A stretch of DNA of 64,000 bases. Origin: Coriobacteriia bacterium. Its GTDB lineage: Bacteria > Actinomycetota > Coriobacteriia > Coriobacteriales > Eggerthellaceae. Made by a program: the position numbers and the translations under genes. Location of the stretch: positions 62,001 through 126,000 of the forward strand of contig JAUNNF010000006.1 in the NCBI GenBank assembly GCA_030537355.1, in the 5' to 3' direction. Numbering within the stretch: the stretch's first letter is position 1; each line of letters starts with the position of its first letter. Positions 55,753 to 58,032 of this stretch are shown here, one piece after another. The notes beneath the pieces were generated by a model that was given only the letters and a program-made list of their open reading frames with translations, ran no database searches and was not told the DNA's origin.

Positions 55753-56944
55753 GCGTAGTCATCATTATCTAACTTATGCAATTGTAGCACTGATTTTTGG
55801 TGTTGCGACTTGCATGATTATGTTTAAAATTCCGACAATTTTAACTAGATTGATGGAAATTATTGAGTGTGATGCCAACGACGCATCCATTTTTATGTCG
55901 TCTTACACACTTATCAGTTGTATTTTTGCATTGCCGGTAGTTTTATTGCTGCGAAAGTTAGGACCTTTACAAATTGCTGTTATTGGTGCCGCATTTGCGC
56001 TGGTTGGAAGCATACTTGGTGCTTTTAGTGTTTATTTAGAAGGCGATAAGGATTATTATTTGCTAGCTATATCACGTGGTATTGAGGGCATTAATTATGT
56101 TTTTGCTAGTATATGCTTGCCAATGCTTATTAAAAATTCAGTTGACAAAAAGAACACTGGTGTTTGTCTTTCAATTTATTCGGTATTTTTTCCGTTAGGC
56201 TCTTTTATTGGTACAAGCTTAACACCAATTATTTTTACAAGTTGTGGATTTGAGTTCACTTGGCTTATCTATGCTGGAGTTATGCTAGTTGCTGGCCTTT
56301 TGCTTTTGTATGTTTTCAAGGATACAAAAACTGTTGTTGAGGCAAGCGACAACAAAAAGCACAATCCGGCCAGTCCTGCTAGTATCGTATTTTTCATGGT
56401 CTCTTGGTGTCTCTTCTGCTTAATGCAAATTGCAATGCTTAATTATTTCCCGATTTATTTGAATACACATTTTGGTATGGATTCGTCTTTGAGCGGCTTG
56501 CTCACTACTCTTCCATCGTTAATTTGCATACCTTTATGTATTTTTGCGGGTCACTTAAGCGATAAGTTTGGAACTTATAAGTATGTGTATGTAGTAACAT
56601 TGGCATTGTTAACTCCTGGTTTGTTTTTGATATTTACTACTGAGGGTGCAGCTTTGGTTATTGGTTATATACTTGTAACTTTAGGTCTTGTCTGCCCTGC
56701 TGTAAACGCAATTGCTGTATTTGAGTTGTTTTGTTCAAAGTATTCCGGAATTGGTATGGCCCTTCTTATTGCTGTTTGTTGCTTAGGGCAAAGTATTGGT
56801 TCTTGGATCATGCAGGTATTAATCGGCAATGATTTTACAGGTTGGATGCAAGGTGCCATTTTCTTACTCGTTTGTGGTATTGTTGCTGTTATTTGTGCGG
56901 TTTTAGCTAGAAGCCAAAGACGCCCATTATCAAACAAAAAATAA
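55745..56944 (+). CDS. major facilitator superfamily transporter
   Basis: 399 residues with about 12 hydrophobic segments, a duplicated six-helix pattern and the loop motif [11 protein letters not shown] between helices 8 and 9. It resembles the sugar-phosphate/nitrate-type or CynX-like MFS permeases in general form, but the substrate is not evident. It overlaps the rpoD stop by eight bases, and it may be translationally coupled. Its 3' end overlaps the convergent unknown gene by 38 bases. Confidence 0.85.
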
Positions 56945-57515
56945 GTCCAGCAACCATCATTAAAAAGAATATGCTTCCTACATAGCATCCAGGATTTTTG
57001 TCACGTGCGGCTTCAACTAGCTTATCAAGAAATCCCATTTTAGATTTTATTATGGCTTGGCCTTCTTCAAGTTTAGGTTTTGGCATAAGTTCTTTTGGTT
57101 GCCATTTTCCGTTTGTTTCTATGATTTTATTTACTGTAAATTTGTCTATTTCAAATTTTGGACGATTACCTTGTTCTAATCTTTTTTGAATGAGGTCACA
57201 AAAAATTTTAAAAGCACCTATTTTTGGATCATGCGCAATTATTAGAATTTCGCCCCAATGAGCACCTCCATCAGAATAGGCTACAAAGGTAAGATATATA
57301 TTTATAGTAAAGTTTTTATTTTTTAGAATTGATATCTCACGTGCTATATCTGCGTCAACCTCGCCGATGTCTTGATTGAATTTATTTAATATTGTTTTAC
57401 CAGAAAGGGTAAAATTATCACCAATTATGCTGTTAGAACTGCACAAATGGGCTGTTTGTTTTTTGCCCTTTGACGTGAAGTTTATGTATTTTGAAAAAGC
57501 TTCTGTTGTTTTCAT
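56907..57515 (-). CDS. hypothetical tail-anchored protein
   Basis: 202 residues and not recognised. A mixed alpha/beta soluble domain covers residues 1 to about 170, and one hydrophobic helix at about 180-200 ends the protein, a tail-anchor topology. TAAAAT (57527-57522) lies six bases before the ATG, and the only purine-rich sequence between is AGG right next to the start, so a leaderless mRNA is likely. It is divergent from mfd across the repeat-bearing gap. Confidence 0.65.
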   Translation of the reverse strand: MKTTEAFSKYINFTSKGKKQTAHLCSSNSIIGDNFTLSGKTILNKFNQDIGEVDADIAREISILKNKNFTINIYLTFVAYSDGGAHWGEILIIAHDPKIGAFKIFCDLIQKRLEQGNRPKFEIDKFTVNKIIETNGKWQPKELMPKPKLEEGQAIIKSKMGFLDKLVEAARDKNPGCYVGSIFFLMMVAGLIFCLIMGVFGF

Positions 57516-57605
57516 GCCTAGATTTTAACATATTTAAAATTTGCGGAGTTTTGATAATTTATTGTTTATATCTTCAGATAATTTCAAAAATCAGAGAAAA
57601 TATGT

Positions 57606-57758
57606 CTAAAACGATAGGTTGTGTGGTATTTAAATTAATAATTTCATCAAATATCAGCTTAATTTAGGGGTTAACAAATTTTCCCTGGTGTTTTGTCATT
57701 AGGATTTATTTATTGTGATATATATTTTGCAAAATTACCACATAACCTATCATTTTGG
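57606..57758. repeat. repeat unit A: inverted pair of a 24-base motif
   Basis: The motif has the core ATAGGTTGTG flanked by an A-run on the left and GGTATTT on the right. It occurs at 57608-57631 (plus) and, reverse-complemented with a few changes, at 57734-57756 (minus). The loop between holds GGTTAACAAATTTT...CTGG at 57669-57688. Similarity to unit B continues into the flanks on both sides. Confidence 0.85.
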
Positions 57759-57790
57759 ATGAAATTAGTCTAAATTTTTAACATTTATGA

Positions 57791-57944
57791 CAAAAATAAT
57801 AGGTTGTGGGTATTTTGGCCACTGTTTTCAATAAATTATTAACTTATATAAAGGTTAAATAAATTTTTATCTGGGCTTTAACTGATCTGTTAATTAAAAT
57901 TCTTGAATTTTATTTGTAAAAACACCCTCAACCTATTATTTTGG
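57791..57944. repeat. repeat unit B: second inverted pair of the same motif
   Basis: Motif copies at 57793-57816 (plus) and 57919-57942 (minus) differ at about two positions. Core-to-core spacing is 131 bases here and 130 in unit A, and the A-to-B offset is 185-186 bases. The inner GGTTAA...AAATTTT...CTGG block recurs at 57853-57874, 184 bases after its counterpart in unit A. Confidence 0.85.
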
Positions 57945-58032
57945 AGGAATATTTATAAATTTTATAGATATTTCATTATTTTGCGCTTCATAATTGATTT
58001 ATATTTCTTTAAATCATTTTGTAAGATACAAT

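What the first reader, a model, noticed from the sequence alone, without database searches (positions are those of the whole stretch)
57596..57966. A tandem-duplicated 185-base unit with four alternating copies of an unexplained motif before mfd
Four copies of a 24-base motif (core ATAGGTTGTG) lie in the order plus, minus, plus, minus. Cores are 130, 55 and 131 bases apart, and unit-to-unit spacing is 185-186 bases. Similarity extends to an inner GGTTAA...CTGG block and to both flanks, so the whole unit was duplicated and then diverged while the motifs stayed closest. This constraint suggests function. Possible roles: a DNA-looping operator for the divergent unknown gene and mfd, a structured RNA with long stems, a segregation or replication site, or remains of a small inverted-repeat element. 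It is in the window's only long non-coding gap.
Basis: partly seen in the sequence, partly recalled or inferred. Interest (0 to 1): 0.78.

Follow-up and report, generated by a model that had tools for sequence, protein, structure and literature searches.

The report
Paired curved-DNA protein-docking elements between genes
The four motifs before mfd are two copies of a small DNA element that this bacterium carries 18 times between genes: two mirror-image docking sites set in naturally curved DNA and kept a whole number of DNA helix turns apart, which points to an unknown protein-DNA assembly and not to an RNA.

Summary
Two arm subfamilies (GATAGGTTGTGGGGTAT and TTAGTTGTGTGGTAAAAA) form 18 inverted pairs at 16 intergenic loci of this 1.51-Mb genome, and none was found in 137 other genomes of its family. 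Arm-to-arm distance takes only four values (138-139, 148-150, 159-160, 170-171 bp), one helical turn apart. A third, asymmetric box (CWGGKNTTTTRT) lies between the arms at offsets that also move in turns. The rest of the interior is unalignable. A-tracts are phase-locked to every arm at ~10.3 bp from about -80 to +65 (power 0.87, best of 2000 controls 0.14), and 150 bp centred on an arm is predicted to be strongly curved. Mismatches between arms show no RNA-strand signature. Gene orientation around the loci matches long gaps in general, so a promoter or terminator role is unlikely. Most likely it is a protein-organised, wrapped or looped DNA element whose arms, box and phasing are kept by selection at each locus while its interior drifts. 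Whether its job is chromosome topology (BIME-like) or end-pairing for movement (MITE/REPIN-like) is open. No transposase and no target duplication were found. The binding protein is unknown.

The parts
57528..57607 (.). left outer flank with A-tracts phased at ~10.3 bp to the arm (curved DNA)
   Evidence: phase-locked A-tract profile over 31 arms; 150 bp centred on this arm at the 4.4th percentile of AT-matched end-to-end distance
57606..57632 (+). arm 1 (unit 1 left): CTAAAACGATAGGTTGTGTGGTATTTA
   Evidence: (46.3 bits)
57685..57696 (+). central box of unit 1: CTGGTGTTTTGT, 77 bp from arm 1, 60 bp from arm 2
   Evidence: Gibbs motif score 257 against 161-178 for shuffled interiors
57732..57758 (-). 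arm 2 (unit 1 right): CCAAAATGATAGGTTATGTGGTAATTT; 5'-to-5' spacing to arm 1 = 148 bp
   Evidence: (49.4 bits)
57757..57792 (.). shared AT-rich spacer with central AAATTT between the back-to-back arms (37 bp 5' to 5', the same in all three tandem loci of the genome)
57791..57817 (+). arm 3 (unit 2 left): CAAAAATAATAGGTTGTGGGTATTTTG
   Evidence: (47.5 bits)
57871..57882 (+). central box of unit 2: CTGGGCTTTAAC, 78 bp from arm 3, 60 bp from arm 4
57918..57944 (-). arm 4 (unit 2 right): CCAAAATAATAGGTTGAGGGTGTTTTT; spacing to arm 3 = 149 bp
   Evidence: (44.7 bits)
57945..58022 (.). right outer flank with phased A-tracts, running up to the 5' end of mfd

Best explanation
Each unit is a DNA-level nucleoprotein element. 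An unidentified sequence-specific protein docks on two inverted arms, each in the middle of ~150 bp of intrinsically curved DNA (A-tracts every helical turn on both sides), and a central asymmetric box provides a third contact. Because all sites lie on the same face of the helix, the DNA can be wrapped or folded into one compact complex of ~300 bp. Shown from sequence: inverted arms, helical quantisation of arm and box spacing, phased A-tracts locked to the arms, unconserved interior, dispersal over 16 loci, indifference to gene orientation. Inferred: that a protein wraps it, and that it works as a chromosome-topology or architecture site (as BIME-2 elements do for gyrase in E. coli) that spread through this lineage by copying, and not as an operator for mfd.
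For: 18 inverted pairs found with a spacing window of 115-200 bp fall only at 138-139 (3), 148-150 (9), 159-160 (3) and 170-171 (3). R = 0.957 at ~10.7 bp; 0 of 200,000 random sets reach it; a conservative 8-class test gives p = 5e-5. Box offsets of 68/78/88/99 from one arm and 39/50/60/70 from the other. A-tract periodicity locked to arms from -80 inward: power 0.87 against 0.14 at most in 2000 AT-matched controls; 16 of 18 elements have a strong window, and elements hold 11 of the 17 top-ranked windows of the genome. Curvature centred on arms is at about the 5th AT-matched percentile, the mid-element only at the 25th. Interiors score close to shuffled sequence apart from the box while arms are ~79-91% alike. 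Gap orientation 9 tandem/4 divergent/3 convergent against 61/24/15% of all gaps of at least 300 bp.
Against: No binding protein identified and no footprint data. No copy in any other genome held, so constraint is inferred within one genome and not from orthologous loci. The scatter, tandem copies, lineage restriction and clustering (8 of 16 loci on one contig, p = 4e-4) also fit a mobile element. The topology role rests on analogy. No HU/IHF family protein was found in the order, so an IHF-type bender is not available as the central factor.
Confidence: 0.6

Rival explanations
1. Non-autonomous mobile element (MITE or REPIN-like). The arms are transposase-binding ends, the box is an accessory bending site, and helical phasing reflects the need to pair two ends across only ~150 bp of stiff DNA.
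For: Terminal-inverted-repeat-like arms, length 140-175 bp, AT-rich, intergenic, orientation-indifferent, tandem copies at 3 loci and a solo arm, lineage-private, regional subfamilies (six of eight loci of the window's arm type within 72 kb). Three Y1 transposase (PF01797) genes exist in the genome.
Against: No target-site duplication signal (best z 2.8 in 690 tests). No Y1 transposase gene lies beside an arm. Neutral dead copies should lose spacing as the interior decays, but all 18 keep it. Phased A-tracts extend ~80 bp outside the arms, where an insert's target should be random.
Confidence: 0.28
2. Strong gyrase-type wrapping sites: each arm is the centre of a ~130-150 bp topoisomerase wrap.
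For: The E. coli gyrase motif is a 130-bp pattern with a central part and two flanks of 10.75-bp periodic G+C content, and gyrase binds BIME-2 (PMC6379681). Here each arm core is flanked on both sides by 10.3-bp phased A-tracts and curvature is centred on the arm.
Against: Gyrase sites are degenerate; here a ~12-bp core is nearly invariant, arms come in helically spaced inverted pairs with a third box, and the family is private to one lineage although gyrase is universal.
Confidence: 0.12
3. Operator pair for a looping transcription regulator of neighbouring genes, mfd included.
For: Helically phased inverted sites are typical of repression loops; 4 loci are divergent gaps, this one among them.
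Against: 3 loci lie between convergent gene ends and 9 in tandem gaps, matching the distribution of all long gaps; neighbours share no function.
Confidence: 0.07
4. Structured RNA with a long terminal stem.
For: Single units fold better than shuffled sequence on both strands (z -2.8 to -4.7); arms of one element resemble each other more than arms of others in the window's arm type (p = 0.001).
Against: Mismatched arm positions in elements with an assigned box strand give 8 G-U pairs on the box strand, 8 on the other and 24 with no pair; spacing steps of one DNA turn have no reason in an RNA; no Rfam match. Template-switch correction of near inverted repeats can explain arm similarity.
Confidence: 0.02

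Closest known systems
BIME-2 / REP arrays with DNA gyrase (E. coli)
   Same: intergenic, units in alternating orientation, tandem combinations, link to DNA wrapping
   Different: arms are not REP palindromes, far fewer copies, pair spacing quantised by helical turn, phased A-tract flanks, extra central box
E. coli gyrase 130-bp motif / phage Mu strong gyrase site
   Same: core flanked on both sides by ~10.3-10.8-bp periodic A/T signal
   Different: near-invariant specific core, paired inverted cores, lineage-private
Correia elements and other bacterial MITEs
   Same: size 140-175 bp, inverted terminal arms of ~25 bp, AT-rich, intergenic, internal site
   Different: no target duplication seen, no parental transposase seen, interior unconserved except a box, phasing extends outside the arms, no HU/IHF family protein found in the order
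REPINs
   Same: two conserved inverted ends with a less conserved spacer
   Different: arms are not themselves palindromic REPs, spacing ~150 bp and quantised, no linked Y1 transposase

Membership tests
MITE / Correia-type element | terminal inverted repeats, short (under ~400 bp), no protein coded | tested here: met
   arms of ~25 bp, unit 140-175 bp
MITE / Correia-type element | target-site duplication | tested here: not met
   no excess of left/right flank identity over mismatched pairs
MITE / Correia-type element | autonomous relative with the same ends | tested here: inconclusive
   all strong arm hits in the 93%-complete genome are these elements and none flanks an ORF of transposase type among the neighbours listed; an assembly gap could hide one
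REPIN (RAYT-mobilised) | ends contain REP palindromes | tested here: not met
   arm core has no internal palindrome like the REP cores cited in PMC3116915
REPIN (RAYT-mobilised) | Y1 (RAYT) transposase linked to ends | tested here: not met
   three PF01797 genes, none beside an arm
gyrase motif / strong gyrase site | ~10.5-10.8-bp periodic A/T in both flanks of a central core | tested here: met
   compared with PMC6379681
gyrase motif / strong gyrase site | gyrase binding or cleavage | not testable with these tools
   needs Topo-Seq or footprinting
structured non-coding RNA | compensatory or G-U-biased stem changes on the transcribed strand | tested here: not met
   8 G-U sense against 8 antisense, 24 without pair
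Rfam families | match at gathering score | tested here: not met
   only tRNAs in the window

The most novel reading that the evidence does not exclude
A dedicated, lineage-specific chromosome-folding element of bacteria, nucleosome-like in DNA design: about 300 bp with A-tracts phased over the whole length and paired docking sites kept an integral number of helical turns apart, read by an undiscovered architectural protein in an order in which the HU/IHF family was not found.
Probability: 0.3. Interest if true: 0.92.

Novelty: new variant of a known kind. Interest (0 to 1): 0.74.

Why it matters
A binding-site pair whose spacing evolves only in whole helical turns is direct sequence evidence for a looped or wrapped complex in living cells. 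Few dispersed bacterial repeats have an inferred physical design. If the reader protein is found, this lineage would be a natural system for asking how chromosomes are organised in a bacterial order where no HU/IHF family protein was detected.

Tried and rejected
RNA hairpin or small RNA: folds well but fails the strand test. Local mfd operator: the family is genome-wide. Invertible promoter: convergent-gap copies make it unlikely; read data would be needed. Target-duplication search: nothing. Exact pattern in genome contigs (6 hits in unrelated organisms, about the chance number) and viral contigs (0). Other strong A-tract windows of the genome: no further arm families seen in those inspected, one looks like oriC. 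De novo search in 800 kb of a relative (G008): no analogue. Papers on helical dependence of transposon end distance, and on HU in this class of bacteria: nothing usable.

Full report
What is in the window. Between a small unknown gene (56907-57515, minus strand) and mfd (likely start 58033; the ORF is open from 57994) lie four copies of one motif in the order +,-,+,-. They form two inverted pairs, 57606-57758 and 57791-57944.

Genome-wide family. The core occurs 20 times exactly in the 1.51-Mb genome against 2 for the reversed control. A sequence profile of the arm (A3, R1) finds 21 arms at eight loci, with a clear gap to the next score (40.1 to 12.6 bits). A k-mer survey of the fetched genome revealed a sister arm, AAAATGTTTAGTTGTGTGGTAAAAAT. 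A joint weight matrix, scanned for inverted pairs 115-200 bp apart, returns exactly 18 pairs at 16 loci, all above 49 bits although the cut-off was 16. All are in intergenic gaps, next to unrelated genes. No other genome of the family (137) has the paired pattern, and arm-profile hits there are weak single matches at chance level. GTDB-wide and viral pattern scans gave about the chance number of hits or none.

Helical quantisation. The 5'-to-5' arm spacing takes only the values 138, 138, 139, 148, 149 (seven times), 150, 159, 159, 160, 170, 171, 171. The circular concentration is 0.957 at ~10.7 bp, and none of 200,000 random sets reaches it. Counting each spacing class once per subfamily still gives p = 5e-5. 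A Gibbs search in the interiors finds one further motif, C(A/T)GG(T/G)NTTTT(A/G)T, scoring 257 against 161-178 in shuffled interiors. In clear cases its distance to either arm also moves in steps of ~10.5 bp (68, 78, 88, 99; 39, 50, 60, 70). The motif is weak or unassigned in C9:79683 and C13:49150. Back-to-back arms of tandem units are 37 bp apart in all three cases.

Curved DNA. Averaged over 31 arms with unshared flanks, A/T trinucleotide runs peak every ~10.3 bp from about -80 to the arm and continue inward to about +65. Spectral power over -70 to -3 is 0.87 against at most 0.14 in 2000 AT-matched controls. Elements hold 11 of the 17 windows with the strongest 10-11-bp periodicity in the genome. 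With a wedge model (parameters from my own memory), 150 bp centred on an arm has a median end-to-end ratio of 0.62-0.67 against 0.90 for AT-matched DNA, while the mid-element is much less curved.

Why not RNA. Single units fold well, but arm mismatches are as often G-U on one strand as on the other (8 and 8), and 24 are not pairable at all. RNA has no reason to keep a DNA helical step. Likeness of the two arms within one element (p = 0.001 in the window's arm type) can come from template-switch correction of near inverted repeats.

Why not simply a transposon. The dispersal, tandem copies and lineage restriction fit one, and that rival is kept at 0.28. But there is no target duplication, no transposase seen beside these ends, phasing that reaches ~80 bp outside the arms, and spacing preserved while the interior has become unalignable (mean interior score -0.011 against -0.040 shuffled). 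Dead copies should not keep phase.

Why not a promoter device. The loci are 9 tandem, 4 divergent and 3 convergent; long gaps of this genome are 61, 24 and 15%. The 16 loci account for a good part of the roughly 112 gaps of at least 300 bp.

Most likely mechanism. A specific protein holds two inverted arms, and a central contact, on one face of pre-curved DNA, giving a compact wrapped or looped complex. The anatomy is well supported; the protein and the cellular purpose are inferred. The nearest known behaviour is that of BIME-2 elements and strong gyrase sites: the E. coli gyrase motif has a central part flanked by 10.75-bp periodic regions (PMC6379681). It is not filed as a member of either.

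Context. No HU/IHF family member (PF00216) was found in this genome or in 40 relatives, while 9 of 14 control genomes have it. Intrinsic curvature may therefore do work that HU/IHF does elsewhere; this is inference. The organism's identity was not given; gene content suggests a low-G+C member of the Coriobacteriales (inference).

Limits. One genome only, 93% complete and in 19 contigs; no expression or binding data; ORF calls are mechanical.

Noticed in passing
G000 C4:206453-206763, C9:164594-164877, C12:124728-125010, C13:13123-13445, C5:58342-58415: A third arm family, TGGACAAAAYYCAATTAATAGGGTTT, usually four arms (++--) with direct spacing 72-73 bp, inner spacing 137 bp (177 at C13) and the same CWGG box at 41 or 51 bp from the arm, but without the A-tract phasing. 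The C4 and C9 copies are 91% identical over 425 bp, so these whole elements have been copied recently.
   Followed up: partly
G000 C4:89999-91051, C9:32854-33897, C13:13453-14475: Three of four paralogues of a protein with a weak DUF559/PD-(D/E)XK nuclease-like C-terminus lie directly beside elements, each of a different arm family. A candidate reader protein, or chance.
   Followed up: partly
G000 and 40 relatives: No HU/IHF (PF00216) match in any of 41 genomes from ten families of the order, though the same search finds it in 9 of 14 control genomes.
   Followed up: partly
G000 C9:20000-112000: A ~90-kb stretch of core genes at 38-43% G+C in a genome of ~35%; six of the eight loci of the window's arm type lie in it.
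   Followed up: no
G000 C7:146526, C12:658 and nine other sites: Hairpin TAGGGGCTGCCCCCAA repeated, two copies close to Y1 transposase genes (C7:146091, C12:194): probably a separate IS200- or RAYT-type repeat system.
   Followed up: no
G000 contig ends (C5, C6, C7, C8, C9, C11, C12, C16, C18, C19): Contigs end in TGCGTATGCTAGTC... or TGCAAATGTCAAGCG...GATTCTCATTGAAAAAT, probably two ends of a multi-copy insertion sequence that broke the assembly.
   Followed up: no
G000 C7:111790-112100: Cluster of TTATCCACA/TGTGGAAA-like boxes with AT-rich DNA, a candidate replication origin.
   Followed up: no
G008 C1 (first 800 kb): A relative carries frequent short repeats ATGGCTGGCACC and AAGTCTGACATG/CATGTCAGACTT, of unknown role.
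   Followed up: no
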